This document shows, piece by piece, positions 49,310-63,990 of a stretch of 64,000 nucleotides of DNA. Below the pieces are notes generated by a model, which saw only the letters and a list, made by a program, of their open reading frames with translations, was not told the origin of the DNA and ran no database searches. The stretch lies in contig NZ_JARUBO010000005.1 of assembly GCF_029626235.1 (NCBI RefSeq), positions 1,210,501 to 1,274,500 of the forward strand. The letters run 5' to 3'. The position numbers were made by a program, and so were the translations under genes. Every line of letters begins with the position of its first letter. Position 1 is the stretch's first letter. The stretch comes from Micromonospora sp. WMMD1120 (GTDB taxonomy: Bacteria > Actinomycetota > Actinomycetes > Mycobacteriales > Micromonosporaceae).

Positions 49310-50797
49310 TCAACGGCCGGCCAGGTCGAGCACCAGCTGCGGCGCGACACCCACCACCACGGCGGCCACCGTCGTCGCGGCCAGCACCAGCGCCACCACA
49401 CCCCCCAGGGGTACGCCCACAGCGCCGCCGCCGTCCGCGGAGGCGGTCGGCGTCGGCGTCCAGAGCGCGGCGGTCACCCGCAGGTAGTAGGCGAGCCCGA
49501 GCACCGCGTTCAGCGCCACCACCAGCGCCAGCCAACCCGCGCCGCCGTCCAGCAGCGCCCGCACCACTGTCACCTTGGCGAACAACCCGGCCAGCCCGGG
49601 CGGCAGGCCGGCCAGGCCCACCAGCGCGAGACCGAACCCGGCGGCCCGCCACGGGTGCCGGCGTGCCGCCCCGCGCAGGTCGTCGACGGTGCCGCCGTCC
49701 GCGCCCACCGGCCGCAGCGCGGTCACCCCGGAGAACGCGGCCAGCTCCAACACCACGAAGAAGACGGCGTACGCGACAGCGGCGGCGTACGCGGCGGCGC
49801 GGGCGTCGTCGGTGCGCCCGGCGGCCAGCGCCAAGGCGCCCAGCGGGGCGAGGATGTAGCCGGCCTGCGCCACCGACGACCAGGCGAGCAGCCGGACGGT
49901 CCGCCGCTGCCGCAGGGCGACCAGGTTGCCGACGGTCATGGTGAGCACCGCGAGCACCGCCAGCACCGGGCCGGTCTGGTCCGCCGGCAGCGCCCGCTGC
50001 ACCACGGCGAGCAGCGCGACCAGGCCGCCCAGCTTCGACGCCGTGGACAGGTACGCGGCCACCGGCAGCGGCGCTCCGTCGTAGGTGGCCGGCGCCCAGG
50101 CGTGGAACGGCACCGCCGCCACCTTGAAGGCCAGCCCGACCAGCAGCACCGCCACCGCCGCGGTGGTCAGCGGCAACTCCCGCAGCTCCGGGCGTTCGGC
50201 GAGCACACCGCCGAGCCGGTCCAGGTGCAGGCTCCCGGTCACCGCGTACAGCAGCGCCGCGCCGAGCAGGGTCAGCGTGGTCGCGACAACGCTGACCACG
50301 AAGAAGGTCACCGCGGCCTCGGCGCTCGCGAGGCTCCCCCGGCGCAGGCCGACGAGCACGTACAGCGGAAGGGTCAACGTCTCCAGAGCGACGATGAGCG
50401 TGATCAGGTCGCCGGCCGCGCCGAGCACCACGCCGCCGGTCATCGAGCAGGCAAGCAGGAAGCAGTATTCCCCCACCGGCGACCGCCCGGCCCGCAGCGC
50501 CGGCACGGACAGCCCGAGCACGCCCACAGTGAGCAGGGCGATCACCGCGCCGACAAGCGCCGCCCGGCCGTTGAACACCCAGGAGCAGTCGGCCCCCACG
50601 CAGAACGTGCGGCGCTGTGCGCCCGCGCCGACCAGGGCGCAGCCGACGGCGGTGCCGACCGCGCCGAGCGCCGCCACCGCGATCGTGGCCCGGGGGCGCG
50701 CCAGCACCAGGTCGGTGACGAGGACGAGCACGGCGGTGCCGGCCGCCAGGTAGGCCGGCAGCAGCGCGACGCTGTCCACACTCTGCACGCCCGTCAC
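49310..50797 (-). CDS. nuoN: NADH-quinone oxidoreductase subunit N
   Basis: Antiporter-like proton-pumping subunit of Complex I. The 495-residue product has ~14 hydrophobic segments, with the conserved Lys-containing stretches FKVAAVPFHAWAPATYDG and LSTASKLGGLVAL. It starts at GTG (50797). It is the last gene of the nuoI-J-K-L-M-N unit, 55 nt after nuoM; that gap is mostly a REP-like element. Confidence 0.95.
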   Translation of the reverse strand: MTGVQSVDSVALLPAYLAAGTAVLVLVTDLVLARPRATIAVAALGAVGTAVGCALVGAGAQRRTFCVGADCSWVFNGRAALVGAVIALLTVGVLGLSVPALRAGRSPVGEYCFLLACSMTGGVVLGAAGDLITLIVALETLTLPLYVLVGLRRGSLASAEAAVTFFVVSVVATTLTLLGAALLYAVTGSLHLDRLGGVLAERPELRELPLTTAAVAVLLVGLAFKVAAVPFHAWAPATYDGAPLPVAAYLSTASKLGGLVALLAVVQRALPADQTGPVLAVLAVLTMTVGNLVALRQRRTVRLLAWSSVAQAGYILAPLGALALAAGRTDDARAAAYAAAVAYAVFFVVLELAAFSGVTALRPVGADGGTVDDLRGAARRHPWRAAGFGLALVGLAGLPPGLAGLFAKVTVVRALLDGGAGWLALVVALNAVLGLAYYLRVTAALWTPTPTASADGGGAVGVPLGGVVALVLAATTVAAVVVGVAPQLVLDLAGR

Positions 50798-50810
50798 CGG
50801 AGCTCACCTT

Positions 50811-50855
50811 CGTTCGCGACTGCGGGGCTCCGCTTCGCTGCACTCCTCGCGCTCA
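50811..50855. repeat. REP-like element between nuoM and nuoN
   Basis: Begins CGTTCGCGACTGCGGGGCTC and ends ACTCCTCGCGCTCA, including the nuoM stop codon. A sister copy with the same ends and a different centre lies at 52373-52419. Confidence 0.85.
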
Positions 50856-52361
50856 CCGGCCGACCACCCCGATCAACGCGTCGACGGGGGCTTCGGCGAC
50901 ACCGAGGACCAGCGTCGGCGCCAGCCCGATGGCCAACGCGAGCAGCACCAGCGGCACCCACGCGGTCAGCTCCGCACCGGCGAGGCCCGGGGCGACCGGC
51001 CCGACGGCCGGGCTCGGCCGCTGGTGGGTGACCTGCCGCAACAGCCGCAGGAAATACGCGGCGGTGAGCGCCCCGCCGACCGCCGCCAGCACCCCGAGCG
51101 TGGTCCAGAGCGGGCCGCCCACCTGCACGGCCGCGACAACCGCGAACGCCTCGCCCCAGAACCCGGCCAACCCGGGTAGGCCGAGCGACGCGATCGCCGC
51201 GAACGCGAGCAATCCGGCCAGCTGGGGCGCGGTCTCGCGCAGCCCGGACAGTTCGGCGAGCGAACCCGTGCCGGTACGGTCCTTCACCGCGCCGGCCAGG
51301 AAGAACAGCAGGCCGGTGATCACCCCGTGCGCGATGTTGCCGATCAACGCCGCCTGGATGCCGGTGGCGGTCAGGGTGGCCACCCCCAGCAGCACGAAAC
51401 CCATGTGCCCGACGCTGGAGTACGCGATCAGCCGCTTCACGTCCGCCTGCGCCAGGCAGACCAGCGAGCCGACCAGGATCGCGGCGACCGCCAGCACGCC
51501 GAGCACCGGCGCCGCCCAGCGGGCGCCCTCCGGGGCCACCCCCACCGCGACCCGGATCAGCCCGTACGTGCCCATCTTCAGCAGCACCCCGGCCAACACC
51601 ACACTGCCCACGGTGGGGGCCTGGGTGTGCGCGTCGGGCAGCCAGGAGTGCAGCGGCCACAGCGGGCTCTTCACCGCGAACGCCACAGCGAGCAGTGTGA
51701 ACGCCGCCAACTGGGTGCCCCGGGACAGCCCCGCGCCACCGGTCAACGCCATCAGGTCGGCGGTGCCGGCGGCGGCGACCACCACGTACACACCGACCAG
51801 GAGCAACACCGAGCCGAAGAGCGTGTAGAGCGCGAACTTGCGGGCCGCCCGACGCCGGTCCGCGCCGCCCCAGCCGGCGATGATCGCGTACATCGGCAGC
51901 AGGACGACCTCGAAGAAGAGGAAGAACAACACCAGATCCAGGGCGAGGAAGGTGCCCAGGATGCCCACCTCGACCACCAGCAGCAACGCCACCAGCGTCC
52001 GGCCGCTGCCGCCGTCCGGCACCCGCCACACCGTGTACGCGCAGCAGAGCAGCGTGAGCAGCGCGGTCAACACCACGAGCGGCCAGGAGATGCCGTCCAC
52101 GCCGAGGTGGAAACGCAACTCCAGACCGGGCACCCACCGCAGATCCAGGTGATGCCACGGGAACACCGCCGGTTCGGTGCCCGACCAGACCAGCCAGTCC
52201 CGACGGCCGAACACCAACCCCACAGCGGCCAGCAGGGTCAGCGCCGCCGCGACCGTCCCGACCAGCCGGGCCGCCCGGTCCCGGGGCGTCGCCGCCACCG
52301 CGACCGCGCCCAGCGCCGGCAGCACCAGCACGGCGACCAGCAACACCTGCCCGAACGTCAT
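50853..52361 (-). CDS. nuoM: NADH-quinone oxidoreductase subunit M
   Basis: Antiporter-like subunit. The 502-residue product has ~14 membrane segments, GVDGISWPLVVL, the conserved Glu in FFFEVVLLPMYAI, the Lys in FAVKSPLWPLHSWLPDAHTQ and LKMGTYGLIRV. The ATG lies 55 nt after nuoL. The stop codon lies inside a REP-like element. Key charged residues for proton transfer are all visible. Confidence 0.96.
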   Translation of the reverse strand: MTFGQVLLVAVLVLPALGAVAVAATPRDRAARLVGTVAAALTLLAAVGLVFGRRDWLVWSGTEPAVFPWHHLDLRWVPGLELRFHLGVDGISWPLVVLTALLTLLCCAYTVWRVPDGGSGRTLVALLLVVEVGILGTFLALDLVLFFLFFEVVLLPMYAIIAGWGGADRRRAARKFALYTLFGSVLLLVGVYVVVAAAGTADLMALTGGAGLSRGTQLAAFTLLAVAFAVKSPLWPLHSWLPDAHTQAPTVGSVVLAGVLLKMGTYGLIRVAVGVAPEGARWAAPVLGVLAVAAILVGSLVCLAQADVKRLIAYSSVGHMGFVLLGVATLTATGIQAALIGNIAHGVITGLLFFLAGAVKDRTGTGSLAELSGLRETAPQLAGLLAFAAIASLGLPGLAGFWGEAFAVVAAVQVGGPLWTTLGVLAAVGGALTAAYFLRLLRQVTHQRPSPAVGPVAPGLAGAELTAWVPLVLLALAIGLAPTLVLGVAEAPVDALIGVVGR

Positions 52362-52372
52362 CGGACCGCCCT

Positions 52373-52419
52373 CGTTCGCGACTGCGGGGCTCGCAGACCC
52401 GGCTCACTCCTCGCACTCA
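52373..52419. repeat. REP-like element between nuoL and nuoM
   Basis: Shares CGTTCGCGACTGCGGGGCTC and the ACTCCTCGC..CTCA end with the element at 50811; its centre reads GCAGACCCGGCTC. It includes the nuoL stop codon and is placed just like its sister copy. Confidence 0.85.
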
Positions 52420-54354
52420 CCCGGTTCCCCCGATCAGGGCGGCAGCCACGCCGACCAGCAGCGCGCCGGCCAGCACGCCGACGGCGGCCCTCGGCAACGC
52501 CGCCCGGTGCAGCGCGGCCAGCGCCGCGCCCAGGCCGGACGCGGCGCGCCCACTGCCCTCGACCGCGCCGTCCACCAGCACCTCGTCACCGGTACGCGCG
52601 GCGCTGGCCAGCGCGCGGACCGGGCGTACGACAATGGCGTGCTGGACGTCGTCGAGCCGGAACGCGCGGGCGAAGACCGGCCCCAACGGACCCAGCGCGG
52701 CCGCCGGGTCGGCGGCCCGGTCGCGGCGCCAACCCAGCGTCACCAGCAGGGCCCCGACCAGCAGGAAGGCCAGCGGCAGCAGCACCCCCAGCCCGAGGTG
52801 GACCAGGCCGTCCTCGGAGCCCGCCACCGGGACGGTGGGGAACCGCAGGCGGTCGGCGAACGCGGGGACGAAGCCGGCCAGGCCGAGCAGCGCGGCCGGC
52901 ACGGTCAGCAGCAGCACCGGCCAGCGCAGCACGGCCGGTGGGTCGTGCGGCCGGACCAGCGGCAGGCGCGGTTCGCCGAAGAAGGCGCGCAGCAGCAGCC
53001 GACCGGCGTACCAGGCGGTGATCGCCACGCCGACCAACCCGGCGACCCAGACCAGCCAGCCCACCCAGGAGGGCGCCGGGCCGGTGCCGTCCAGCGCGGC
53101 GGCCTCGGCGACCGTCAGCACGCCGTCCTTGCTCCAGAAACCCGCCAGTGGCGGCACCCCGGCCAGCGCGCCCAGCCCCACCACGGTGCACCAGAACGTG
53201 ACAGGCATGCTGCGCCGCAGCCCGCCCATCTCGGACATCAGCGTGGTGCCGACCGCGTGGATGACGGCCCCCGCGGCGAGGAACAGCAGGGCCTTGAACG
53301 CGGCGTGGGTGAGCAGGTGGAACAGCGCCGCCGACGGTGAGCCCACCGCCAGCGCGCCGGTCATGTAGCCGAGCTGGGACACCGTCGACCAGGCCAGCAC
53401 CCGTTTGATGTCGTCCTGGGCGGTGGCCGCGAGCGCGCCGAGCAGCACCGTGATCGCGCCGAGCACCCCCAGCACGGTCAGGGTCACCGGCGCGGCGGTG
53501 AACAGCGGGTAGAGCCGGGCCACCGCGTACACGCCGGCGGCGACCATCGTCGCGGCGTGGATCAGCGCGGAGATCGGCGTCGGGCCGGCCATCGCGTCCG
53601 GCAGCCAGGTGTGCAGCGGGAACTGGGCGCTCTTGCCGGCCACACCGGCGAGCAGCAGCAGCCCGGCGGCGGTCAGCGTCACGCCGGAGTGGTCGTGGGC
53701 GAGCACGTCGCTGATCCGGAAGCTGCCCGTCGACACGCCGAGCAGCGCGATGCCGAGCAGGAACCCGACGTCACCGACCCGGGTCACCAGGAACGCCTTC
53801 ATGGCGGCGGCGGGAGCGCCGGGCAGTCGGCGGTCGTGGGCGATGAGCAGGTACGAGCACAGACCCATCACCTCCCAGCCGACCAGCAGCATGATCAGGT
53901 CACCGGCGACCACCACCAGCAGCATCGCCCCGGTGAAGAGGCTGATCTGCGCGGCGTACGGCGGGTAGCGGTGGTCGACGTCGAGGTCGTCGTGCGGACC
54001 CCGCCGCAGGTAGCCGATCGAGTAGACCTGCACGGCCAGGGCGACAGCGGTGACCGCCACCGCCACCAGTGCGGCGGCGCCGTCCAGCCGTACGCCGAGG
54101 GTCACCGCCAGGCCGCCGAGGTCGACCCAGGTGGTCGACGTCTCCGTCGGACCGTCGACGGTCAGCAGCAGCGCCACGGCCAGGGCCAGCGCGCCGGCCG
54201 CACCGGTGACACCGAGCGCGACGGCCGCCGTCCGGGCCCGGTCTCCCCCGGTCGCGTCCGCGTCCCGGTCCCGCGGGGCCGGCGGCAACAGCAGGCCGAG
54301 CAGCCCGGCGACCAGGGGTACGGCGGGCAGCGCCGCGCCGAGCAGCCCGGTCAC
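52417..54354 (-). CDS. nuoL: NADH-quinone oxidoreductase subunit L
   Basis: Largest antiporter-like subunit of the distal membrane arm. The 645-residue product starts at GTG (54354), overlapping nuoK by 4 nt. It contains the conserved Glu in [14 protein letters not shown], Lys in [36 protein letters not shown] and [18 protein letters not shown]. The C-terminal lateral helix region is present. Normal length. Confidence 0.97.
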
Positions 54355-54713
54355 CGGTTCGCCTCCGTGCTCGTGGCGGCCGGCTCCCGCGCACCGGCGG
54401 GGTGCGGCGGCTCGGTCAGCGGCACGTCGTCCACCGCCACCGTCCGCCGCAGCCGGTAGAGCTGGAGGACGATCGCCAGCCCCACCCCGATCTCGGCGGC
54501 GGCGAGGACGATCACGAACAGGGCGAAGACCTGCCCCGAGTGCGGGAGCACGGCACGGGCGGTGGTGTCGGCGGTGACCAGGATCAGGTTGACCGCGTTG
54601 AGCATCAGCTCGACCGACATCAGCACCAGCACCGCGTTGCGGCGGCGCAGCACGCCGTACACGCCGAGACCGAACAGCAGCGCGGCGGTGACGTACGGGA
54701 TGACCGGCCTCAC
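54351..54713 (-). CDS. nuoK: NADH-quinone oxidoreductase subunit K
   Basis: Three-helix membrane subunit that links the quinone site to the pumps. The 120-residue product has the two conserved membrane glutamates in [14 protein letters not shown] and [16 protein letters not shown]-terminal polar extension of about 20 residues is longer than usual. It starts at GTG (54713) and overlaps both nuoJ and nuoL by 4 nt. Confidence 0.97.
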
Positions 54714-55270
54714 CGGCGTCCCCCGGGCTCGACCTCGACCGGGTCGGTCACCGCCGCCGTGCTGTGCGGAGCAGCACGGCCGATCTCCGGTCGGGACAGC
54801 ACTATCGCGCCCACCAGGGCGGACAGCAGCAGCACCGACAGCACCTCGAACGGCAGCACCCAGGACTGGAAGATCTGTTCGCCCAGCCGCTCGGCGGTGC
54901 CGGCGGTGGGCAGGTCGACGGCGCTCCAGCGGTACGCGTCGACGAGCAGCACGGCCAGCCCCAGCCCGGCCCCGCCGCCGATGAGCGCGGCCGGCCAGCC
55001 CTGCCGGTCCAGATCGTCCGACGCGCCGATCGGGGCGCGGGTCAGCATGACCGCGAACAGCAGCAGCACCACCACCGCGCCCACGTAGATCAACACCTGC
55101 ACCCAGGCCACCAGCTCGGCGCTGAGCACCAGGAAGTCACCGGCCAACGCGGCCAGGCACACCACCAGGTAGAGCCCGGCGCGGACCAGGTGTTTCGTCG
55201 TCACCACCAGCGCACCGGCGCCGACCGCCACCGCCCCGAGGGCGAGCAGCAGCACGTCCGCCCCGGTCAC
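54710..55270 (-). CDS. nuoJ: NADH-quinone oxidoreductase subunit J
   Basis: Five-helix subunit with the pi-bulge helix. The 186-residue product contains [18 protein letters not shown] and the conserved [15 protein letters not shown]. It starts at GTG (55270), 25 nt after nuoI, and overlaps nuoK by 4 nt. Confidence 0.96.
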
Positions 55271-55295
55271 CGGAGGGTCTCCAACGCCGAGGCGG

Positions 55296-55895
55296 TCACG
55301 AGGCGGCGCCGGGTTCGGGGCGTACCCCTGGAGAGGCCGGACGGGCGGTCGCCGCCTTGCGCGCGGCGGACGTCTCCTCCTTGGCCGGCTCGCCGTTGGG
55401 GTCGTGCGCCTGCGGCGGCGGGACGGTGGCCATCCACTGACCGAGGTGGTCCTTGTCGTGCAGCAGGTCCTTGATGTCGTACTCCGAGTACTCGAACTCG
55501 GGCGACCAGTAGAGGGCGTCGAACGGGCAGACCTCGATGCAGATGCCGCAGTACATGCAGAGCGAGAAGTCGATGTCGAAGCGGTCGAGCACGTTGCGCT
55601 GGCGGGGGCGGGCGGCGCCGGGCACCGCCACCTCCTCCTTGTGCGAGTCGATGTAGATGCACCAGTCCGGGCACTCCCGGGCGCAGAGCATGCAGACCGT
55701 GCAGTTCTCCTCGGACAGCGCGATCACGCCCCGGGAGCGGGGCGGCAGGTCGGGTGCCACGTCCGGGTACTGCTGGGTGGTCGACCGGCTGGTCATCGTC
55801 TTGAGGGTGACCGCCAGCCCCTTCACCAGGCCCGCGCCGGGCAGGCCACGCTCGCCGGCGCCGCCGCGCTCGCTGGGGTCGCTCATGTCGACCAT
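55296..55895 (-). CDS. nuoI: NADH-quinone oxidoreductase subunit I
   Basis: Peripheral-arm subunit carrying two [4Fe-4S] clusters (N6a, N6b) toward NuoB. The 199-residue product has [14 protein letters not shown] and [14 protein letters not shown], each a CxxCxxCxxxCP motif, and a ~50-residue Pro/Ala-rich tail. An ATG three codons in (55886) is a possible start. It is the first gene of the six-gene nuoI-N unit. In complete operons it follows nuoH, but here the Uma2-like gene lies upstream on the opposite strand. Confidence 0.96.
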
Positions 55896-55990
55896 CCTGC
55901 CCTGTGCCCACGGCGCGCGCGACCACCACCCACAGGTCGAAGGCGGTACCGTGGTCGCGGGGAGAACGAACGCACCCGGAAGGACCTGCC

Positions 55991-56566
55991 ATGACCGCCG
56001 CGCTGCAGAGCGACCACCCGCCCGAGAGCGAGTGGACGACTGACGATCTGGATGCGCTGCCCGAGGATGGCCGCCGCCGGGAACTGCTCGATGGAGTGCT
56101 GCTGATGTCCCCCTCCCCCACCCGCATCCACCAGACCATCGCCGGTCGCCTGATGGCCGCGCTCGACGAGGAGTGCCCGGACGGCTACGACGTGACCCAG
56201 GGGGTCGAGGTGCGGATCAACCGCACCCGGTCGTTCATCCCCGACGTGTTGATCACCACCTCGACCGCGGCGGCCCGCGAGCCGTCGAGGTACGAGCCGC
56301 ACGAGGTGGTCCTCGCCGTCGAGATCGTCTCACCGAGCACCCGTTCCATCGACCGGGTGCTGAAGCCGGCGCTGTACGCCCAGGCCGGCATCCCCTACTA
56401 CTGGCGGATCGAGACCGAGGGCGGCGCGCTGGAGGTGGTCACCCACCGGATCGACGCGGTCAACGAGGTCTACACCGAGACCGGGCGGTGGACGAAGTTC
56501 GTCGACACCGGCGAGCCCTTCCCCATCAACCTGCCGGTCGCCCGGATCACGCCTCGGGCCCACTGA
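55991..56566 (+). CDS. Uma2-family (DUF820) nuclease-like protein
   Basis: The 191-residue product belongs to the PD-(D/E)xK-fold Uma2 family: [31 protein letters not shown] and [19 protein letters not shown] carry the Glu, Asp and Glu/Lys positions of the putative active site. The ATG at 55991 follows AAGGACC. Members occur in many copies in actinobacteria; the cellular role is unknown. It interrupts the nuo genes and its 3' end overlaps the convergent SnoaL-like gene by 20 bp. Confidence 0.9.
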
Positions 56567-56978
56567 CCACGGTCGGCGGCAGCATCTCGACGCCGAGCTG
56601 CTGGAGCAGCTGGAACAGCTCGTTGCAGCTCCACACCTCGACGATCCGGCCCTCCGTGCCGAAGCGCAGGAACGTGGCCCCGGAGTAGCTGACCACCTGC
56701 CCGGTCGGCGGCACCGGCCCGAACTGCCCGACCTGGGTGCCGGCCGCCCGCCAGTGCACCGCCACCCGCTCGCCGGAGGCGACCACGTCGACGATCTTGT
56801 AGCGCAGGTCCGGGAACGCCGCCCGGCGTTCCCGGTGCCAGGCCAGCGTCGCCTCCGGCCCGGTGCCGCCGCCCAGCCCCGGGCACTGCTCGCCGACCAG
56901 CTCGTACGCCGACTCCTCGCGGCGGGCGTTCCACACGTCGGCGATGAACCGCCGGGCCGCCGCCTCCACATCCGTCAT
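56547..56978 (-). CDS. SnoaL-like (NTF2-fold) protein
   Basis: The 143-residue product has the ester-cyclase/SnoaL layout: FIADVWNARREESAYELVGE, HRERRAAFPDLRYKIVDVVA, ERVAVHWRAAGTQVG and GRIVEVWSCNELFQLLQQLG. This fold includes polyketide cyclases and many proteins of unknown role. No polyketide genes are close. It converges with the Uma2-like gene, and their 3' ends overlap by 20 bp. Confidence 0.85.
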   Translation of the reverse strand: MTDVEAAARRFIADVWNARREESAYELVGEQCPGLGGGTGPEATLAWHRERRAAFPDLRYKIVDVVASGERVAVHWRAAGTQVGQFGPVPPTGQVVSYSGATFLRFGTEGRIVEVWSCNELFQLLQQLGVEMLPPTVVSGPEA

Positions 56979-57057
56979 GCCGGGGAGGGTAACCGGACGC
57001 CCGGTCGTAGATCCGTAAGGATGGGGTAGAGACAGGGGACCGAACCGGGAGGATCAC

Positions 57058-58077
57058 GTGGGCGAGGAAACAGGCGGGAAGTACGTCGAGCCGGGCGGCG
57101 AGTTCACCCGGGACCAGCGGTACATCGCCACTCGGATCACCGAGGACGGGCGCGACGGCTATCCGGTGGAGCCCGGTCGCTACCGGCTGGCGGTCAGCCG
57201 GGCCTGCCCGTGGGCCAACCGCCTGATCATCGTACGGCGGCTGCTCGGCCTGGAGGACGCCCTCTCGATGGCGGTGGCCGGCCCGACCCACGACGCGCGG
57301 AGCTGGACGTTCGACCTCGACCCGGACGGGCGGGACCCGGTGCTCGGCATCGAACGCCTCCAGGAGGCGTACTTCAAGCGCTTCCCCGGCTACGACCGTG
57401 GCATCACCGTGCCGGCGATCGTGGACGTGCCGACCGGGCAGGTGGTGACGAACGACTACGCGCAGATGAGCCTGGACCTGTCCACGCAGTGGCGCGCGTA
57501 CCACCGCGACGGCGCCCCCCAGCTCTACCCCGAGCACCTGCGTACGCAGATCGACGAGGTCAACGAGGTGGTGTTCCGGGACGTCAACAACGGCGTCTAC
57601 CGGTGCGGGTTCGCCGGCAGCCAGGAGGCGTACGACAAGGCGTACCACCGGCTCTTCGACCGGCTGGACTGGCTGACCGAGCGACTGACCGACCAGCGTT
57701 ACCTGGTGGGCGACACCATCACCGAGGCCGACGTGCGGCTGTTCACCACGCTGGTCCGCTTCGACCCGGTCTACCACGGCCACTTCAAGTGCAACAGGCA
57801 GAAGCTGAGCGAGATGCCGGTGCTGTGGGCGTACGCCCGGGATCTGTTCCAGACCCCCGGTTTCGGCGACACCATCGACTTCGACCACATCAAGCGGCAC
57901 TACTACGAGGTGCACCGCGACATCAACCCGACCGGGATCGTGCCGCTCGGCCCCGACCTGTCCAACTGGCTCACCCCGCACGGTCGGGAGGCGCTGGGTG
58001 GTCGCCCGTTCGGCGACGGCACCCCACCCCCACCCCCCACCGAGACCGTAGACCCAACCCACACCCCCCTCCCCTGA
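57058..58077 (+). CDS. Glutathionyl-hydroquinone reductase-like (Xi-class GST)
   Basis: The 339-residue product has the catalytic CPWA motif in LAVSRACPWANRLIIVRRLL, VPAIVDVPTGQVVTND and the helical domain with GDTITEADVRLFTTLVRFDP and GHFKCNRQKL. Xi-class enzymes reduce S-conjugated hydroquinones. Actinobacteria use mycothiol, so the thiol used here may be mycothiol. The start is GTG (57058) after GGGAGG. It lies divergent from the SnoaL-like gene and upstream of a repeat block. Confidence 0.92.
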   Translation: MGEETGGKYVEPGGEFTRDQRYIATRITEDGRDGYPVEPGRYRLAVSRACPWANRLIIVRRLLGLEDALSMAVAGPTHDARSWTFDLDPDGRDPVLGIERLQEAYFKRFPGYDRGITVPAIVDVPTGQVVTNDYAQMSLDLSTQWRAYHRDGAPQLYPEHLRTQIDEVNEVVFRDVNNGVYRCGFAGSQEAYDKAYHRLFDRLDWLTERLTDQRYLVGDTITEADVRLFTTLVRFDPVYHGHFKCNRQKLSEMPVLWAYARDLFQTPGFGDTIDFDHIKRHYYEVHRDINPTGIVPLGPDLSNWLTPHGREALGGRPFGDGTPPPPPTETVDPTHTPLP

Positions 58078-58100
58078 CCCCACGCCCCCACCCTCCCGCC

Positions 58101-58218
58101 CCCGCTGATCTTGACTCCCGCTCCCGCTGATCTTGACTCCCGCTCCCGCCGATCTTGCACTTAGGTATGCCGAAACACCCGCTTTGCGGGTTTTTGTCAC
58201 CACAGAAAACGCAAGATC
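58101..58218. repeat. 22-bp tandem repeats and palindromic GATCTTGC element
   Basis: GATCTTGACTCCCGCTCCCG repeats with a 22-nt period (58107, 58129), then a GATCTTGC...GCAAGATC element spans 58151-58218. Inside it the hairpin ACCCGC-TTT-GCGGGT followed by TTTT (58177-58195) could terminate transcription of the GST gene; the A-rich left side could serve nuoH as well. Confidence 0.85.
58177..58195 (+). terminator. Intrinsic terminator after the GST gene
   Basis: Stem ACCCGC/GCGGGT with loop TTT and a T5 tract (T4 beyond the stem) on the plus strand, 100 nt after the GST stop codon. It lies within the palindromic element. Confidence 0.7.
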
Positions 58219-58254
58219 GACGGGGGAGGGCGGGACGCGGGGCCGCGGGCGCGG

Positions 58255-59217
58255 TTAGAGGGTTAGGCGGACTGTTGCGGTCAGGACGAGCTGGGCCAGG
58301 GAGGCGGGGACCAGCACCAGCCAGCAGAGGCGTTGGAGTTGGTCCTCGCGCAGCCGGGGGTAGGACACCCGGAGCCAGATGATCACGAAGGACACGGCGA
58401 AGACCTTGAGCAGGGTCCAGAGCCAGCCCAACTGCTCGTCGGCGAACGGGCCCTGCCAGCCGCCGAGGAACAGCACGGTGGTCAGCGCGGCGATCACCAC
58501 GATCCCGACGTACTCGGCGAGCAGGAAGAACGCGAACCGCAGCCCGGTGTACTCGGTCATGTAGCCGAAGACCAGTTCCGAGTCGGCCACCGGCATGTCG
58601 AACGGCGGTCGGCGGATCTCGGCCAGCCCGGCGACGAAAAATACGATCATGGCGGGCGCCTGCCACAGCAACCACCACGGTCGCCACGCCTCCACGATGC
58701 CCGGCAGGCTGAGCGTGCCCGCCGCCATCGCCACCGAGGCGGCCGCGAGCACCAGCGGCAACTCGTAGCCGAGTAGCTGCGCGGCGCCCCGCAACCCGCC
58801 GAGCAGGCTGTACTTGTTCGCCGACGCCCACGCCGACATGAGCACCGCCACCACCCCGACGCCGACCACCGCCAGCACGAAGAACAGGCCGATGTCCAGC
58901 GGTTGCCCGACCAGGTCGTTCGGGCCGAGCGGGATGACCAGCAGCACCAGCAGGTAGGGCACCAGCGCCACCGCCGGCGCCAGCCGGAACACCGCCCGGT
59001 CGGCCTCGCGCGGGGTGATGTCCTCCTTCTGCACGAACTTCACGCCGTCGGCCACGAGCTGCGCCCACCCGTGGAAGCCACCCGCGTACATCGGGCCGAG
59101 CCGGCCCTGCATGTGCGCCATCACCTTGTGCTCGGCCTGGCCGACCAGCAACGGCAGGGTGAGGAACGCGACCACCACGCCGCCGATCCGCAGCACCAGC
59201 TCCAACCAGAGCGGCAT
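58255..59217 (-). CDS. nuoH: NADH-quinone oxidoreductase subunit H
   Basis: Membrane subunit that forms the quinone chamber with NuoB and NuoD. The 320-residue product starts MPLWLELVLRIGGVVVAFL at the ATG ending at 59217, which overlaps the nuoC stop by 1 nt. Eight membrane helices, EHKVMAHMQGRLGPMYAGG and RRPPFDMPVADSELVFGYM are visible. The canonical ETNRxPFD reads EIRRPPFD here. nuoD, normally before nuoE-H or fused to nuoC, is absent at this position. Confidence 0.96.
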   Translation of the reverse strand: MPLWLELVLRIGGVVVAFLTLPLLVGQAEHKVMAHMQGRLGPMYAGGFHGWAQLVADGVKFVQKEDITPREADRAVFRLAPAVALVPYLLVLLVIPLGPNDLVGQPLDIGLFFVLAVVGVGVVAVLMSAWASANKYSLLGGLRGAAQLLGYELPLVLAAASVAMAAGTLSLPGIVEAWRPWWLLWQAPAMIVFFVAGLAEIRRPPFDMPVADSELVFGYMTEYTGLRFAFFLLAEYVGIVVIAALTTVLFLGGWQGPFADEQLGWLWTLLKVFAVSFVIIWLRVSYPRLREDQLQRLCWLVLVPASLAQLVLTATVRLTL

Positions 59218-60041
59218 CAGGCCGTACCCCCGTCGTGGCCAATCGGGTCGTCGCCCGCCGGCCCGGCAGAGCCCGGGTCGGTCGGTGCCGGGCCCGCGCC
59301 GGACCCGGGCCTGTCGGTCGGCGCCGGGCCGTCGGCGGTGCCGGCGGGTCGGGGTGTACGCGCCGGACGGGCCCCCGGGGCGGGCCGCGCCGGACGCCCG
59401 CCGGCGGGCCGGGCCGGGGTGCCGCCACGCGGCCCCTCCCCGACCCCACCGGCGCCGGCCGGGGTGGGCGTGGGACCCCACTCGCCCGGGGCGGGGACGC
59501 CCGGCGGGCGGATCGGTCGACGCCCGCCGCCGGCCTCGGACTCGCCCGGCTCCTTCGCGCCCGGCCAGGGCTTGGCCACCCGGGAGGCGAGCACGAACTC
59601 CTTGCGCAGCGGATGGCCCTCGAACTCCGGCGGCAGCAACAGGGGGCGCAACTCCCCGTGACCGGGGAAGTCGATACCGAACATCTCGTGCGTCTCCCGT
59701 TCGTGCCAGGCGGCACCCGGGTAGACGTCGACCACCGACGCGAGGGCGGGCGCGTCGCGGGGCAGGCGGGTACGCAGCAGCACGCCGTGGCGCAACCGCG
59801 TCGACCACAGGTGCGCCACCACGTCGAAGCCCTCGGCCAACTCGTCGACGGCGGAGAGCCAGTCGAAGAAGTCGCAGGCCAGCTCGGCGTCGTCACGGGT
59901 GGTCCGCAGCGCGGTCAGCCAACTCTCCGGTGGCACGTCGACGGTGGCGCGGGCGAACCGTTGCCCGCCGGAGACCGACGAAGTCGCCGCAACCGGCGCG
60001 AGCGACGCCACCAGCCGAGCGCCGACCTCTTCGGGAGTCAT
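59217..60041 (-). CDS. nuoC: NADH-quinone oxidoreductase subunit C with long low-complexity tail
   Basis: Peripheral-arm 30-kDa subunit. The 274-residue product starts MTPEEVGARLVASLAPVAA at the ATG ending at 60041. Residues ~1-160 are the NuoC domain: HERETHEMFGIDFPGHGEL and EFEGHPLRKEFVL. Residues ~165-274 are an extension made mostly of Pro, Gly, Ala and Arg that is not part of the family. It is directly coupled to nuoH (TGATG), with no nuoD between. Confidence 0.93.
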   Translation of the reverse strand: MTPEEVGARLVASLAPVAATSSVSGGQRFARATVDVPPESWLTALRTTRDDAELACDFFDWLSAVDELAEGFDVVAHLWSTRLRHGVLLRTRLPRDAPALASVVDVYPGAAWHERETHEMFGIDFPGHGELRPLLLPPEFEGHPLRKEFVLASRVAKPWPGAKEPGESEAGGGRRPIRPPGVPAPGEWGPTPTPAGAGGVGEGPRGGTPARPAGGRPARPAPGARPARTPRPAGTADGPAPTDRPGSGAGPAPTDPGSAGPAGDDPIGHDGGTA

Positions 60042-60136
60042 GCCGCTGATCCTAGTGCCGCCCCGGCCTCCACCTGGCCGGCGGCGATCTGCCGGCTTCG
60101 GGTACGGCACGGCCTGCGGCGGGGAAAGATGAGGGC

Positions 60137-61183
60137 GTGCGCGCTGTGACTGTGCAACCCGGAGTCGCCGACTCGCTGTACCTCGTCGAGGATCAGCCGG
60201 AGCCGCCCGCCGAGGAGGGCTCGATCCTGGTCGAGGCGCTTGCCGTCGGCATCTGCGGCACCGACCACGAGATCATCGCCGGGGACTACGGCGAGGCGCC
60301 GCCGGGCGCCGATCGCCTGATCATCGGGCACGAGTCGCTGGGCCGGGTGATCGAGGACGCCAGCGGCACCGTGCGACCCGGCGACCTGGTGGCCGGGATC
60401 GTCCGGCACGCCGACCCGGTCCCCTGCCTCAACTGCGCCGTCGGCGAGTGGGACATGTGCCGCAACGGTCAGTACACCGAGCACGGCATCAAGGCGCTGC
60501 CGGGGTTCGCCCGCGACCGCTGGCGGATCGACCCCTCCTACGTGGTCCGGCTGGACCCGGCGTTGGCGCAGGTGGGTGTGCTGCTGGAGCCGACGAGTGT
60601 GGTGGCGAAGGCCTGGGACCACATCGAACGGATCGGGCACCGGGCCGAGTGGCAACCGCAGACCGTGTTGGTGACCGGCGCCGGGCCGATCGGGCTGCTG
60701 GCCGCGTTGCTCGGCACCCAGCGCGGGCTCACCGTGCACGTGTTGGACCGGGCGACCGACGGGCCGAAGCCGGAGCTGGTCGCCGGGCTCGGCGCGACCT
60801 ACCACGCGGTGCCGGTCAACGACCTGCCGTTCGAACCGGACGTGGTGGTGGAGTGCACCGGGGCGCCGACCGTCGTCCTCGACGTGATGTGCAAGGCGGC
60901 GCCGAACGGGATCGTCTGCCTGGCCGGGGTGTCCAGCGGCGGCCGGACCATCGACTTCGACGCCGGTGCGCTCAACCGGGAGCTGGTGCTGGAGAACAAC
61001 GTGGTGTTCGGCTCGGTGAACGCCAACCGACGGCACTGGACGATGGCGGCGCAGGCGCTCGCCCGCGCGGACCAGATCTGGCTGGAGTCGCTGATCACCC
61101 GGCGGGTGCCGGTGAACAGGTACGCCGACGCGTACACCCCGGGGCCGGACGACATCAAGGTGGTGCTCGAGTTCGCGTCCTGA
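60137..61183 (+). CDS. Zinc-dependent glucose 1-dehydrogenase-like enzyme
   Basis: Medium-chain dehydrogenase. The 348-residue product starts at GTG (60137) and has AVGICGTDHEII with the catalytic Cys, IIGHESLGRVIE with the His and Glu ligands, CLNCAVGEWDMC of the structural region and the nucleotide-binding VLVTGAGPIGLLAALLG. This matches archaeal-type glucose dehydrogenases (oxidation of glucose or another aldose to the lactone with NAD(P)). The substrate is not provable from sequence. It separates nuoC from nuoB. Confidence 0.88.
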   Translation: MRAVTVQPGVADSLYLVEDQPEPPAEEGSILVEALAVGICGTDHEIIAGDYGEAPPGADRLIIGHESLGRVIEDASGTVRPGDLVAGIVRHADPVPCLNCAVGEWDMCRNGQYTEHGIKALPGFARDRWRIDPSYVVRLDPALAQVGVLLEPTSVVAKAWDHIERIGHRAEWQPQTVLVTGAGPIGLLAALLGTQRGLTVHVLDRATDGPKPELVAGLGATYHAVPVNDLPFEPDVVVECTGAPTVVLDVMCKAAPNGIVCLAGVSSGGRTIDFDAGALNRELVLENNVVFGSVNANRRHWTMAAQALARADQIWLESLITRRVPVNRYADAYTPGPDDIKVVLEFAS

Positions 61184-61199
61184 GCGGACGTGCCCGGTC

Positions 61200-62090
61200 C
61201 TAGATGCCGGGCAACCGACCGTTGCGGAACAGGTCGACGAAGAGTTGGTGGTCCTGTCGGGCACGCACCCCGTACGCGTGCGCGAAGTCCACCAGGTGGT
61301 TGACGAAACCGGGCTCGTCGCCGTCCACCGCCGCGACGATCGCCTCCTCGGTGGAGTAGTCCACCAGGTCGTGGCTGGACTCGTCGTCGGCGACCGAGTG
61401 CATCCGGGCCACCGCCCGTCCCAGGTCGACGAGCACCCCGGTCAGCTCCTCCGGCTCGTTCACGTCGGACCAGTCCAGGTCGGCGGCGTTGTCGATCGTC
61501 GTCTGCGCGGCGAGCAGGTCGACCCGGGTGTTGAGCCGGGCCTGCTGGAGCACCCGGCGCAGCACCCCGTCGGCGTTGTCCAGCGTGATAGAGCCGATCG
61601 CGTCGTCACCGCCGGCGGCGATCGCCCGCAGCTCGGTCAGGTACGACCGGGCGAAGCCGGCCACCAGTTCCCCGATCGCCGTGTCGGAGAGCGCCTTGCC
61701 GTAGCCGAGCAGCGCCACGCTGGCCGGCAGCCGCCGCAGGTCCCAGGTGAACGGCCCGACGTACGCCTCGTCGAAGTCGTTGACGTTGACGTTGACGTTG
61801 AACACCAACTGCCCGGAGGCGTTCATGTAGGTGCCGAAGTTCTCCGCGTGCAGGTCGCCATGGATCCATACCCGGCCGGTCCGCTCGTCGAGGAAGCGGT
61901 CGTCGGCGAAGTCACCGAGCTGGTCGGCGTAGAAGAGCGCGGCGCTGCCCCGGTAGAAGGCGAACGGGGAGGCCGCCATCTTCCGGAGCCTACGCCGGAA
62001 CGCGGCCGGGTCGATCGCCATCGACGCCCCGAACTCCGCGCTGAGCACGTCGACGATGTGCGTCGCGCGCTGGCCCCCTGAGCTGCTCAT
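61200..62090 (-). CDS. DUF2252 protein with repeat insertion
   Basis: The 296-residue product (start MSSSGGQRATHIVDVLSAE; GTG at 62165 and ATG at 62144 are alternatives, none has a clear ribosome binding site) carries the kinase-like motifs SPFAFYRGSAALFY, IHGDLHAENFG and NDFDEA. A run NVNVNVNDFDE arises from three GTTGAC units in the DNA where the family usually has VNDFDE. The family resembles aminoglycoside-phosphotransferase-type folds, function unknown. It converges with the dehydrogenase gene, with 16 nt between them. Confidence 0.82.
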   Translation of the reverse strand: MSSSGGQRATHIVDVLSAEFGASMAIDPAAFRRRLRKMAASPFAFYRGSAALFYADQLGDFADDRFLDERTGRVWIHGDLHAENFGTYMNASGQLVFNVNVNVNDFDEAYVGPFTWDLRRLPASVALLGYGKALSDTAIGELVAGFARSYLTELRAIAAGGDDAIGSITLDNADGVLRRVLQQARLNTRVDLLAAQTTIDNAADLDWSDVNEPEELTGVLVDLGRAVARMHSVADDESSHDLVDYSTEEAIVAAVDGDEPGFVNHLVDFAHAYGVRARQDHQLFVDLFRNGRLPGI

Positions 62091-62270
62091 GGTGCGCAGG
62101 GTAGTGCGGCGGTTCCAGAACGAGGTGGCGATCCGTCCGGTCATCGACCATGATGTCTCGGTCACGGCACGGGGGCTGGGACACCACGGTTACGACGATC
62201 GATCGCACCGCCCGCAGCGGGCGTGCGCGTGCCCCTTGCCGGACGTCGACCATGGAGGACCAGAAACACC

Positions 62271-63188
62271 ATGATCAAACGTACGGGGACACTGCTCACC
62301 GCCGCCCTGCTCGGCCTGACCGCGACGATCGGCTGGGCCGGACCGGCCGCCGCCGCGCCGGCCGACGCTCCTACCGTCACGGTGAGCCGGCTGGTGCTCG
62401 AACCGACCGAACGCGGCTACCGCGGCAGCATTCGCGTGACGGTCACCAACAACAGTGACAGCACGGATCACGTCACGTTCCAGATCCGGGAGGCGGTGGC
62501 GGGCTCCTTCTCCGGTGGGCCCGAGTCGCTCTGCGAATCGGACGGCGTGTCGGAGGGGCGACTGGTCCGTTCCTGCGCCTTCCCGCGCAGTTCCGAGCTG
62601 GCCCCGGGTGAGCGCCGTCAGGCCACCGTCGACTTCCAGGTGCTGACCAGTCCCCGCAGCTACCCGATGATCGCGGACGGTGGCCTGGTCACCGTGCAGT
62701 CAGCGAACGTCGGGTCGTTGGAGACCATCCCGTTCAGCGCGCGGTTCCGCTCCCTCGACGGCACGCTGACCCGTCCGCAGACGTACGTTCAGGACGCCCT
62801 GACGAACGCGTCCGTCGAGCTGATCGGTCCGGTGACCGACGGCCCGGAGAACACCCGACGGGTGCCGTTCCGGGTCCGGTACTCGGGTGACGCTCGGCAG
62901 CTCGCCAACTCGCTCACCGCCACGCCGTTGCCCGCCGGGTCGATGATCCTCTTCACCGAACCCTTCGACGGCCCGGTCTACAGCGCACAGGCCTTCGTGC
63001 CGGGTGGGCTCCTGATGCAGGGCGAGGAGCGCGACGTGGCACTCTACATCACCCGGCCGACCGACCCGGCGGACGAGTCGAACCCGATCACCCTGGAGCT
63101 GAAGACCCACTACTGGGACGAGACGGTTCCCGACGTGGACCCGAGCGACAACACCGTCACGTTCAACCTGGCCCTGCCGACCAGCTGA
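62271..63188 (+). CDS. Secreted protein of unknown function
   Basis: The 305-residue product starts MIKRTGTLLTAALLGLTATI and has a typical Sec signal peptide ending near AAAA-PADAP (about residue 32). The mature part is rich in beta-strand-like segments (GSIRVTVTNNSDSTDHVTFQ, then a C-terminal NTVTFNLALPTS), suggesting Ig- or fibronectin-like beta-sandwich repeats. There is no catalytic motif. GGAGGA lies 12 nt before the ATG, a rather long spacing. It is divergent from the DUF2252 gene and convergent with nuoB. Confidence 0.8.
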   Translation: MIKRTGTLLTAALLGLTATIGWAGPAAAAPADAPTVTVSRLVLEPTERGYRGSIRVTVTNNSDSTDHVTFQIREAVAGSFSGGPESLCESDGVSEGRLVRSCAFPRSSELAPGERRQATVDFQVLTSPRSYPMIADGGLVTVQSANVGSLETIPFSARFRSLDGTLTRPQTYVQDALTNASVELIGPVTDGPENTRRVPFRVRYSGDARQLANSLTATPLPAGSMILFTEPFDGPVYSAQAFVPGGLLMQGEERDVALYITRPTDPADESNPITLELKTHYWDETVPDVDPSDNTVTFNLALPTS

Positions 63189-63242
63189 CCCACCAGCGGC
63201 GGGCCGTCATCCGGACCAGCTCCGGGTGGCGGCCTGCAGCCG

Positions 63243-63824
63243 TCAGCGCGCCGTGGGTGGGCGGACCGGCGGGGCGGTGAGCGAGTCGACCGAGCGGGGC
63301 GCGGCGGCCTCGCGGGGTGGCGCGTCCAGCGGCGCGGCCAACGCGTCCCGCTGCGGCACCCCGCCGATGCCGGACTGCTCGGCCGCGATCTTCTCCTGCA
63401 GGCGCAGGATGCCGTGCAGCAACGCCTCCGGTCGGGGCGGGCAGCCGGGCACGTACACGTCGACCGGAATGAGCTGGTCGACGCCCTTGGTCACCGAGTA
63501 CGAGTCCCAGTAGGGGCCGCCGCAGTTCGAGCAGGCGCCGAACGAGATGACGTACTTCGGCTCGGGCATCTGGTCGTAGAGCCGCTTGATCGCCGGGGCC
63601 ATCTTGTCGGTCACCGTGCCCGAGACGACCATCAGATCGGCCTGCCGGGGGCCGTGGGCGAACGGGATCACGCCGAGCCGGATGAAGTCGTGCCGGCCCA
63701 TGCTGGTGGCGATGAACTCGATCGCGCAGCAGGCGAGGCCGAAGTTGAACACCCAGAGCGAGTAGCGGCGTCCCCAGTTCAACACGAACCGGATCGGCTC
63801 ACCGAGCACCGCCGGTAGCTGCAC
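63243..63824 (-). CDS. nuoB: NADH-quinone oxidoreductase subunit B
   Basis: Carries the terminal [4Fe-4S] cluster N2 that reduces quinone. The 193-residue product starts at GTG (63824), giving [20 protein letters not shown]. The cluster ligands are in [19 protein letters not shown] and [15 protein letters not shown] ~45-residue Ala/Pro-rich tail follows. It lies 3.2 kb upstream of nuoC, separated by three unrelated genes. nuoA is not seen before it in the remaining ~175 nt. Confidence 0.95.
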
Positions 63825-63990
63825 GGACGCCCCCTCTCTCCTCCACCGACAGTGAATCACAGTCGGATGTCGCGGACCGGACAGGCCGACACCGCGCTCC
63901 GCTGCAACCCCGAGGCCCGCTCAGGACTTTTAACGGGGTACGGCGCGCCGAGCAGGGGCGCCGCCAACGGGGACCACGGGAGGACTCTTG

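What the first reader, a model, noticed from the sequence alone, without database searches (positions are those of the whole stretch)
49310..63824. Incomplete Complex I gene set broken into three pieces by unrelated genes
nuoI-J-K-L-M-N, nuoC-nuoH and nuoB share strand and relative order with a normal nuo operon, but plus- and minus-strand genes for a Uma2-like nuclease, a SnoaL-like protein, an Xi-class GST, a glucose-dehydrogenase-like enzyme, a DUF2252 protein and a secreted protein sit between the blocks. nuoD, E, F and G are missing from the window, and nuoA is not seen. Complex I lacking the NADH module is known from other actinomycetes; a nuo set without D next to C and H would also lose the quinone-site partner of NuoB. 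Either nuoD is elsewhere, or this is a variant complex that borrows subunits.
Basis: partly seen in the sequence, partly recalled or inferred. Interest (0 to 1): 0.7.

Follow-up and report, generated by a model that had tools for sequence, protein, structure and literature searches.

The report
Scattered second Complex I with methyltransferase
A Micromonospora bacterium carries a second version of respiratory Complex I without the NADH-oxidising part; its genes have drifted to five places on the chromosome but still make a full 11-subunit set, next to genes for a ferredoxin-reducing enzyme and for a relative of a human Complex I methyltransferase, and its quinone-binding residues are altered.

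Summary
In detail: nuoN2-M2-L2-K2-J2-I2, nuoH2-nuoC2 and nuoB2 are intact and separated by unrelated genes; A, D, E, F and G are not in the window. But the set is complete in the genome: an orphan nuoD2 lies about 312 kb away and an orphan nuoA2 about 1.48 Mb away, besides a canonical nuo1. The arrangement is conserved across Micromonospora; outgroups keep nuo2 compact except for nuoD2.
(1) korAB, 2-oxoacid:ferredoxin oxidoreductase genes, lie divergently beside nuoA2 (own genome, 14/14 genus loci) and beside the outgroup clusters that keep nuoA2 (9/9 named): a likely ferredoxin source. (2) nuoD2 is linked to a MidA/NDUFAF7-family methyltransferase gene (35/35 genus, 75/80 named loci) and has the arginine that NDUFAF7 methylates (127/127); NuoD1 has Thr (30/30). 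(3) The quinone-ligand Tyr of NuoD is Trp (127/127), NuoB R87 is Ala, NuoH E216 hydrophobic, NuoA D79 Ala, while the pump residues tested are kept.
Best reading: a ferredoxin-fed, proton-pumping Complex I-like enzyme with an altered acceptor site and its own methyltransferase. Electron transfer, acceptor and methylation are inferred.

The parts
49310..50797 (-). nuoN2 (495 aa)
   Evidence: PF00361 E 2.4e-47; E133, K217, K247, K395 kept in 42 of 42 aligned
50853..52361 (-). nuoM2 (502 aa)
   Evidence: PF00361 E 4.4e-74; E144, K234, K265, E407 kept in 45 of 45 aligned
52417..54354 (-). nuoL2 (645 aa)
   Evidence: PF00361 E 9.1e-76, PF00662 E 1.2e-9; E144, K229, K399 kept in 46 of 46 aligned
54351..54713 (-). 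nuoK2 (120 aa)
   Evidence: PF00420 E 1.4e-25; E36, E72 kept in 46 of 46 aligned
54710..55270 (-). nuoJ2 (186 aa)
   Evidence: PF00499 E 1.3e-34; Y59 kept in 47 of 47 aligned
55296..55895 (-). nuoI2 (199 aa), two CxxCxxCxxxCP motifs
   Evidence: Fer4 E 2.3e-11; motifs read in the translation
55904..56566 (+). interrupting gene: Uma2-family protein
   Evidence: PF05685 E 3e-24; between H2 and I2 in 15 of 26 genus loci
56547..56978 (-). interrupting gene: SnoaL-like protein
   Evidence: PF07366 E 9.5e-26; 22 of 26 genus loci
57058..58077 (+). interrupting gene: glutathione S-transferase (GST_C_2/GST_N_2)
   Evidence: PF13410 E 1.2e-13; 26 of 26 genus loci
58255..59217 (-). nuoH2 (320 aa); positions E216 and R37 changed
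   Evidence: PF00146 E 8.1e-103; start at 59217; residues
59217..60110 (-). nuoC2 (297 aa), overlaps the start of nuoH2
   Evidence: PF00329 E 4.2e-36
60137..61183 (+). interrupting gene: glucose-dehydrogenase-like (Glu_dehyd_C)
   Evidence: PF16912 E 1.3e-76; 29 of 29 genus loci
61200..62165 (-). interrupting gene: DUF2252 protein, shorter than in relatives
   Evidence: PF10009 E 1.1e-57; 27 of 29 genus loci
62223..63188 (+). interrupting gene: putative secreted protein, no Pfam hit
63243..63860 (-). nuoB2 (205 aa); four N2 cysteines kept, position R87 is Ala
   Evidence: PF01058 E 3.8e-28; residues
48322..49197 (-). M48-family peptidase gene behind nuoN2; a conserved neighbour of type-2 sets
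   Evidence: PF01435 E 4.7e-33; follows N2 in 24 of 26 genus stretches, beside N2 or I2 in many outgroup stretches

Best explanation
This is a complete second Complex I-like enzyme of 11 subunits (A2, B2, C2, D2, H2-N2) without the NADH module, encoded in five places in Micromonospora: B2; C2-H2; I2-N2; D2 with MidA; A2 beside korAB. A 2-oxoacid:ferredoxin oxidoreductase (KorAB) most likely reduces ferredoxin, which feeds electrons through NuoI2 and NuoB2 to an acceptor, probably menaquinone, in a rebuilt chamber, and the conserved antiporter arm pumps protons. A MidA/NDUFAF7-family methyltransferase encoded next to nuoD2 dimethylates the arginine near cluster N2 during assembly; NuoD1 of the same cell lacks that arginine. 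Shown: gene set, places, conservation, residues, linkages. Inferred: ferredoxin transfer, acceptor, direction, pumping, methylation.
For: Orphan nuoD2 and nuoA2 in the same genome. Among 36 genus relatives: D2 in 35, A2 35, C2 35, B2 34, H2 34. Purifying selection on close pairs: dN/dS D2 0.05-0.10 (7 pairs), H2 0.04-0.06 (6 pairs), the other subunits under 0.3 except one K2 pair at 0.39. korA (TIGR03710, above cut-off) and korB (TIGR02177, just below cut-off) lie divergently 1.9 kb from own nuoA2, 0.2-1.9 kb in 14 of 14 genus nuoA2 loci, 0.4-3.7 kb from nuoA2 in 9 of 9 named outgroup clusters with nuoA2 in place and in G042, and beside nuoB2 in 3 of 6 reduced sets. Pump residues kept. Arg at the NDUFS2-R85 site in 127 of 127 NuoD2, Thr in 30 of 30 NuoD1. 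MidA in 46 of 47 genomes with NuoD2, clearly in 0 of 14 without; upstream on the same strand in 35 of 35 genus loci and 73 of 80 named loci, 2 more close by on the other strand. In a phylum sample, 15 of 16 class members with D2 have a PF02636 gene, all 15 within 7 kb and in three arrangements, and 0 of 21 class members without D2 have one. NDUFAF7 methylates R85 of NDUFS2; the P. denitrificans residue is methylated, E. coli's is not, T. thermophilus has Thr (PMC3829151, PMC3750175, passages).
Against: No expression, purification or mass-spectrometric data. The quinone-ligand Tyr is lost, so 'menaquinone' may be wrong. korAB genes also occur in bacteria without nuo2 (recalled, not tested here), three reduced sets (G044, G045, G058) show no korAB in the stretch held, and G046, G048 and G055 show none in the 1.4-2.5 kb held upstream of A2; no ferredoxin gene was identified. 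MidA evolves faster than NuoD2 (dN/dS 0.25-0.34) and hits no NCBIfam model. One class member (G288) has D2 but no PF02636 hit; of 65 more distant genomes with a NuoD-like hit below 1e-100, 24 lack a PF02636 hit, and their residues were not read. E. coli NuoCD has the Arg without methylation, so Arg alone proves nothing.
Confidence: 0.65

Rival explanations
1. Hybrid complex: type-2 subunits replace or mix with nuo1 subunits in one Complex I, as suggested in print for Streptomyces nuo2.
For: PMC9239103 proposes a hybrid machinery (passage). Six sampled genomes (G041, G044, G045, G057, G058, G060) have B2-C2 (five with I2 seen, five with D2) but no type-2 H or A found, so there a second peripheral module would need nuo1's membrane arm.
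Against: In Micromonospora a full own set exists, including C2 and D2, which the printed argument took to be missing. Ten of eleven type-2 subunits were aligned to their nuo1 counterparts and are 33-52% identical over the aligned parts (J gave no hit), and residues around the acceptor chamber changed together in A2, B2, D2 and H2.
Confidence: 0.13
2. Enzyme with a non-quinone acceptor: the remodelled chamber no longer serves quinone.
For: Quinone-ligand Tyr is Trp in 127 of 127 and in 240 of 240 listed database proteins; NuoB R87 is Ala in 54 of 54; NuoH E216 is V/I/L in 52 of 52; a stretch of about 41 residues with the SMESLIHHFK motif is missing from 127 of 127 NuoD2. Sets without an own membrane arm keep the Trp.
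Against: The quinone-ligand His is kept in 127 of 127; the NiFe-ligand Cys motifs of group 4 hydrogenases are absent; Trp could still allow quinone binding.
Confidence: 0.18
3. Degenerating relic operon.
For: Scattering and insertion of unrelated genes; gaps of 1.2-4.9 kb between B2 and C2 in the genus.
Against: Frames intact, purifying selection, the tested cofactor and pump residues kept, genus-wide retention.
Confidence: 0.03

Closest known systems
Streptomyces nuo2 cluster (SCO4599-SCO4608) with separate nuoD2
   Same: Second nuo set without E, F, G and with nuoD2 outside the cluster (PMC8388888, PMC9239103, passages).
   Different: In print it is said to lack C (and D, L); here C2 and D2 are present, and a C2 gene also lies in the Embleya cluster. 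In Micromonospora the cluster is split further and nuoA2 is separate. The Trp/Arg residues, MidA and korAB linkages are not mentioned in the passages seen.
11-subunit Complex I-like enzymes (Desulfitobacterium; cyanobacterial NDH-1)
   Same: No NADH module, same core subunits; a 2-oxoacid:ferredoxin oxidoreductase (PFOR) with ferredoxin is a proposed donor in Desulfitobacterium (PMC11238625, passages).
   Different: NdhH of 6hum keeps the quinone-ligand Tyr (alignment; organism recalled); here it is Trp. The host is an aerobic actinomycete (recalled) that also has nuo1 with E, F and G.
Canonical Complex I (nuo1 of the same genome; 8e9g)
   Same: Homologous core, N2 ligands, pump residues.
   Different: Thr instead of Arg at the R85 site, Tyr instead of Trp, NADH module present.
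NDUFAF7/MidA methyltransferase and NDUFS2 Arg85
   Same: A PF02636 gene beside a NuoD that carries the target arginine; a DVGAGRGEL stretch is present.
   Different: Bacterial, tied to one of two NuoD paralogues; activity not tested. Similarity to the solved DUF185 structure 1zkd is weak (E 8e-9) and no NCBIfam model matches.

Membership tests
Complex I-like enzyme, 11-subunit type | A, B, C, D, H, I, J, K, L, M, N all encoded | tested here: met
   (A2 and D2 elsewhere on the chromosome)
Complex I-like enzyme, 11-subunit type | no own NADH module (E, F, G) | tested here: inconclusive
   No E, F or G among the frames scanned in the set, beside it, or beside D2 and A2; nuo1 has all three. A genome-wide search for orphan E, F, G copies was not made.
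Complex I-like enzyme, 11-subunit type | FeS ligands of N2 (NuoB) and the two clusters of NuoI | tested here: met
   NuoB four Cys in 54 of 54 full-set sequences; NuoI read in one sequence
Complex I-like enzyme, 11-subunit type | proton-pump residues of K, L, M, N | tested here: met
   (residue numbers recalled, mapped by alignment)
Canonical quinone-reducing Complex I | conserved His and Tyr quinone ligands in NuoD | tested here: not met
   His kept, Tyr replaced by Trp in 127 of 127
Group 4 NiFe hydrogenase | two CxxC NiFe motifs in the large subunit | tested here: not met
   alignments with HycE and Mbh
NDUFAF7/MidA | PF02636 domain | tested here: met
   E 1.9e-18, above cut-off
NDUFAF7/MidA | symmetric dimethylation of the NuoD arginine | not testable with these tools
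   target Arg present in 127 of 127; needs mass spectrometry
KorAB 2-oxoacid:ferredoxin oxidoreductase | alpha and beta subunit models | tested here: met
   alpha TIGR03710 651.7 bits, cut-off 482.75; beta TIGR02177 249.6 bits, just under its cut-off of 261.9; Pfam POR_N, POR, TPP_enzyme_C. Substrate not tested.

The most novel reading that the evidence does not exclude
Actinomycetes have a widespread Complex I paralogue, fed by KorAB and ferredoxin, that keeps the proton-pumping arm but no longer reduces quinone in the canonical way: a Trp-based, methylarginine-tuned site serves another acceptor or works in reverse (proton-motive force driving ferredoxin reduction for KorAB). A dedicated NDUFAF7-type methylase matures it, and some lineages keep only its B-C-D-I module.
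Probability: 0.2. Interest if true: 0.82.

Novelty: new variant of a known kind. Interest (0 to 1): 0.65.

Why it matters
The tyrosine that binds the quinone head group is called strictly conserved in the Complex I literature (PMC8119997, passage); a large natural clade with Trp there, with changed NuoB, NuoH and NuoA residues and an intact pump, is a natural experiment on how acceptor chemistry couples to pumping. One cell with a methylatable and a non-methylatable NuoD makes the role of NDUFAF7 methylation testable in bacteria. The korAB linkage suggests the missing electron donor of an NADH-module-free Complex I in an aerobe, and the gene set answers the printed view that Streptomyces-type nuo2 lacks NuoC and NuoD and may be a hybrid.

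Tried and rejected
A C-H fusion from the long frame 58255-59808: rejected, two overlapping genes. A NiFe hydrogenase reading of NuoD2: rejected, no metal-ligand Cys. A decaying operon: rejected. My earlier conclusion that no donor gene is linked to the set was wrong: reading the frames beside nuoA2 again showed korAB; this raised my confidence from 0.6 to 0.65, lowered the two main rivals by 0.02 each and raised interest from 0.6 to 0.65. No paper search on korAB with nuo2 was possible any more; from recall only, Streptomyces korAB lies near its nuo2.

Literature: ten searches (open-access PMC only; listings) and passages from seven papers (PMC3829151, PMC3750175, PMC11238625, PMC8119997, PMC9239103, PMC8388888, PMC9739823). 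No listed paper links MidA/DUF185 to actinobacterial nuoD or describes the Trp, as far as titles and abstract starts show; subscription papers are not covered.

Limits of the counts. The 127 NuoD2 are not independent: 80 named loci (the best 80 of 584 candidates, mostly Micromonosporaceae), 46 relatives and the own gene overlap in species. The 240 database proteins are the best 120 of each of two searches. The 30 NuoD1 are those returned as loci. In one search only matches of at least 42% identity over more than 60% of the query were aligned; the rest were left out uncounted. Of the 5 named loci without MidA, one has only 256 bases upstream. Cluster stretches were fetched for 30 of 36 genus relatives, nuoA2 stretches for 14 of 36. 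One search holds typed coordinates for 58 of the 65 PF02636-positive genomes; 57 pairs were compared (G107 had no NuoD row). Left out are 8 whose NuoD hit is above 1e-100 (G082, G107, G116, G150, G223, G228, G240, G263), while G100 at 9.1e-96 was kept. E. coli residue numbers are recalled; four NuoCD numbers (H228, R249, Y277, D329) did not land on the named residue, so NuoD columns were chosen by motif.
Full report
What is there. The window lies at C5:1210501-1274500 of a 7.15 Mb genome. The minus strand carries nuoN2, M2, L2, K2, J2 and I2, after about 2.4 kb nuoH2 and nuoC2, and after about 3.1 kb nuoB2. To the right the next frame is on the plus strand; ten frames scanned up to about 14 kb beyond the window are not nuo genes.

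Where the missing genes are. PF00346 finds nuoD1 in the canonical nuo1 cluster and one further NuoD, nuoD2, at C5:1586028-1587203. PF00507 finds nuoA1 and an orphan nuoA2 at C5:2750208-2750582. PF00329 finds only nuoC1 and the window's nuoC2. nuo1 carries E, F and G and A-D, H, I, K-N; J was not tested. So the type-2 set A2, B2, C2, D2, H2-N2 is present, in five places. Orphan second copies of E, F or G were not searched for genome-wide.

Conservation. In 36 genus relatives: NuoD2 35 (missing in G023), NuoA2 35 (missing in G010), NuoC2 35 (missing in G005), NuoB2 34 (missing in G001, G005), NuoH2 34 (missing in G005, G010). The four genomes with misses have 560-990 contigs. Cluster stretches were fetched for 30 of the 36. 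In 29 with both B2 and C2 the GDH gene lies between them in 29, DUF2252 in 27, the putative secreted protein in 3; in 26 with both H2 and I2 the GST gene lies between them in 26, SnoaL in 22, Uma2 in 15. I2-J2-K2-L2-M2-N2 is in order in 26 of 26, followed by the M48 peptidase within the stretch in 24. Among 20 named genomes of other genera, nine keep A2 next to B2 (Longispora, Actinocatenispora, Streptosporangium, Planobispora, Planotetraspora, Microbispora, Embleya, two Actinomadura); no D2 hit lies in any of the 20 stretches. Salinispora has B2 and C2 98 bases apart, and Dactylosporangium is compact from B2 on; in Asanoa and Phytohabitans only B2 lies in the stretch. The order of events is inferred: D2 separated first, A2 separated within the Micromonosporaceae, insertions followed. 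dN/dS on close pairs is 0.05-0.10 for D2 and 0.04-0.06 for H2, so function is kept.

The electron donor. Beside own nuoA2, divergent and 1.9 kb away, lie genes for both subunits of a 2-oxoacid:ferredoxin oxidoreductase, KorA and KorB. They are divergent from nuoA2 at 0.2-1.9 kb in 14 of 14 genus nuoA2 loci and at 0.4-3.7 kb in 9 of 9 named outgroup clusters with nuoA2 in place, and in G042. They also lie next to nuoB2 in three of six reduced sets (G041, G057, G060). They were not seen in G044, G045, G058, nor in the 1.4-2.5 kb held upstream of A2 in G046, G048 and G055. So nuoA2 stands at what looks like the ancestral nuo2 site, and the rest moved away. KorAB makes reduced ferredoxin; that this ferredoxin feeds NuoI2 is inferred, and the 2-oxoacid is not known. 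On the other side nuoA2 lies next to a pterin-binding (folP-like) gene in 14 of 14, once at 1.1 kb.

The methyltransferase. A PF02636 gene (E 1.9e-18) lies upstream of nuoD2 on the same strand in 35 of 35 genus loci, in 25 with 8 bases between the aligned ends, stop codon included. In 80 named loci it is upstream on the same strand in 73 (up to 4.1 kb away), close by on the other strand in 2 and not found in 5. In the 61-genome sample 46 of 47 genomes with NuoD2 have it; the exception, G044, has its contig end about 470 bases upstream. Of 14 without NuoD2 none has a clear one; two have weak hits (G041 1.3e-8, G023 8.8e-4). Presence tracks NuoD2 inside two families (f5: G055 both, G040 neither; f12: G060 both, G047 neither, the latter 86% complete). 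In a sample of 248 genomes of the phylum, 15 of 16 class members with NuoD2 have a PF02636 gene, all within 7 kb and in three arrangements, and 0 of 21 without NuoD2 have one. In other classes 42 pairs were compared: 17 have it 7.7-8.4 kb downstream on the same strand, 6 more 9-20.4 kb, 1 at 25.7 kb, 6 within 7 kb on the other strand, 12 on another contig. The roughly 8 kb spacing fits an operon that ends in the methylase gene after nuoN; this is inferred from spacing. Against a strict rule, 24 of 65 distant genomes with a NuoD-like hit below 1e-100 have no PF02636 hit.

The target. NDUFAF7 dimethylates Arg85 of NDUFS2, near cluster N2; T. thermophilus has Thr there (PMC3829151, passages). The residue is methylated in P. 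denitrificans, and present but unmethylated in E. coli (PMC3750175, passages). NuoD2 has Arg in 127 of 127, NuoD1 Thr in 30 of 30. The cell holds one methylatable and one non-methylatable NuoD, and the methylase gene sits with the former. Methylation itself is an inference.

The acceptor site. The NuoD tyrosine that binds the quinone head group is described as strictly conserved (PMC8119997, passage). It is Tyr in 30 of 30 NuoD1 and Trp in 127 of 127 NuoD2, and Trp in 240 of 240 listed database homologues. The His ligand is kept. NuoD2 lacks about 41 residues with the SMESLIHHFK motif in 127 of 127. Other changes against both E. coli and nuo1: NuoB R87 is Ala in 54 of 54 full-set sequences, NuoH E216 is V/I/L and R37 is His in 52 of 52, NuoA D79 is Ala in 28 of 28. 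Kept are the N2 cysteines, NuoH E36, E157, D213 and E228, NuoK E36 and E72, NuoJ Y59, and the tested Lys and Glu of L, M and N; NuoA E81 is E or D. The acceptor side was rebuilt; the pump was not.

Reduced sets. In G041, G045, G057, G058 and G060 the locus is B2-C2-I2-M48 without H2; in G044 the contig ends after C2. D2 lies elsewhere in five of the six (not found in G041), and no type-2 NuoH or NuoA was found in any (G060 has an extra partial NuoH, 47% identical, at a contig end). NuoB R87 and R91 vary there, NuoD2 keeps Trp and Arg. Either these modules dock on the nuo1 membrane arm or they work without one. Type-2 J-N were not searched genome-wide there.

Mechanism. The chain 2-oxoacid, KorAB, ferredoxin, NuoI2-NuoB2, acceptor, with proton pumping, is the best-supported reading. 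The acceptor is the weak point: menaquinone in a changed pose is conservative; a non-quinone acceptor or reverse operation is the bold reading. The hybrid proposed for Streptomyces nuo2 rested on missing C, D and L genes (PMC9239103, passage); here these are present, and a C2 gene is also present in Embleya.

Noticed in passing
L298, L299, L300 (hits in G013, G014, G015, G017, G018, G027, G034): A third set with NuoA- and NuoH-like genes (31-38% identical to type 2) occurs in 7 of 36 genus relatives, with J-, K- and antiporter-like (PF00361) genes around it in the three read; no third NuoD was found in these genomes, so it looks like a membrane-arm-only cluster.
   Followed up: partly
L172-L177 (G060, G044, G057, G058, G045, G041): Type-2 sets reduced to B2-C2-I2 (plus D2 with MidA elsewhere) without type-2 NuoH or NuoA.
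   Followed up: partly
window 61200-62165: The DUF2252 gene lacks 438 bases between codons 226 and 227 that are present in 23 of 27 genus loci with a two-piece match: an in-frame shortening in this genome.
   Followed up: partly
window 48322-49197: An M48 peptidase gene follows nuoN2, or nuoI2 in reduced sets, in several families, suggesting a quality-control or maturation role for the type-2 complex.
   Followed up: partly
window 62223-63188: A protein without Pfam hit is present at this spot in only 3 of 29 genus loci: probably a recent insertion.
   Followed up: partly
L005:5042-6902: A sigma-70-family regulator gene and its neighbour lie upstream of nuoB2 in several relatives; possible regulator.
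   Followed up: no
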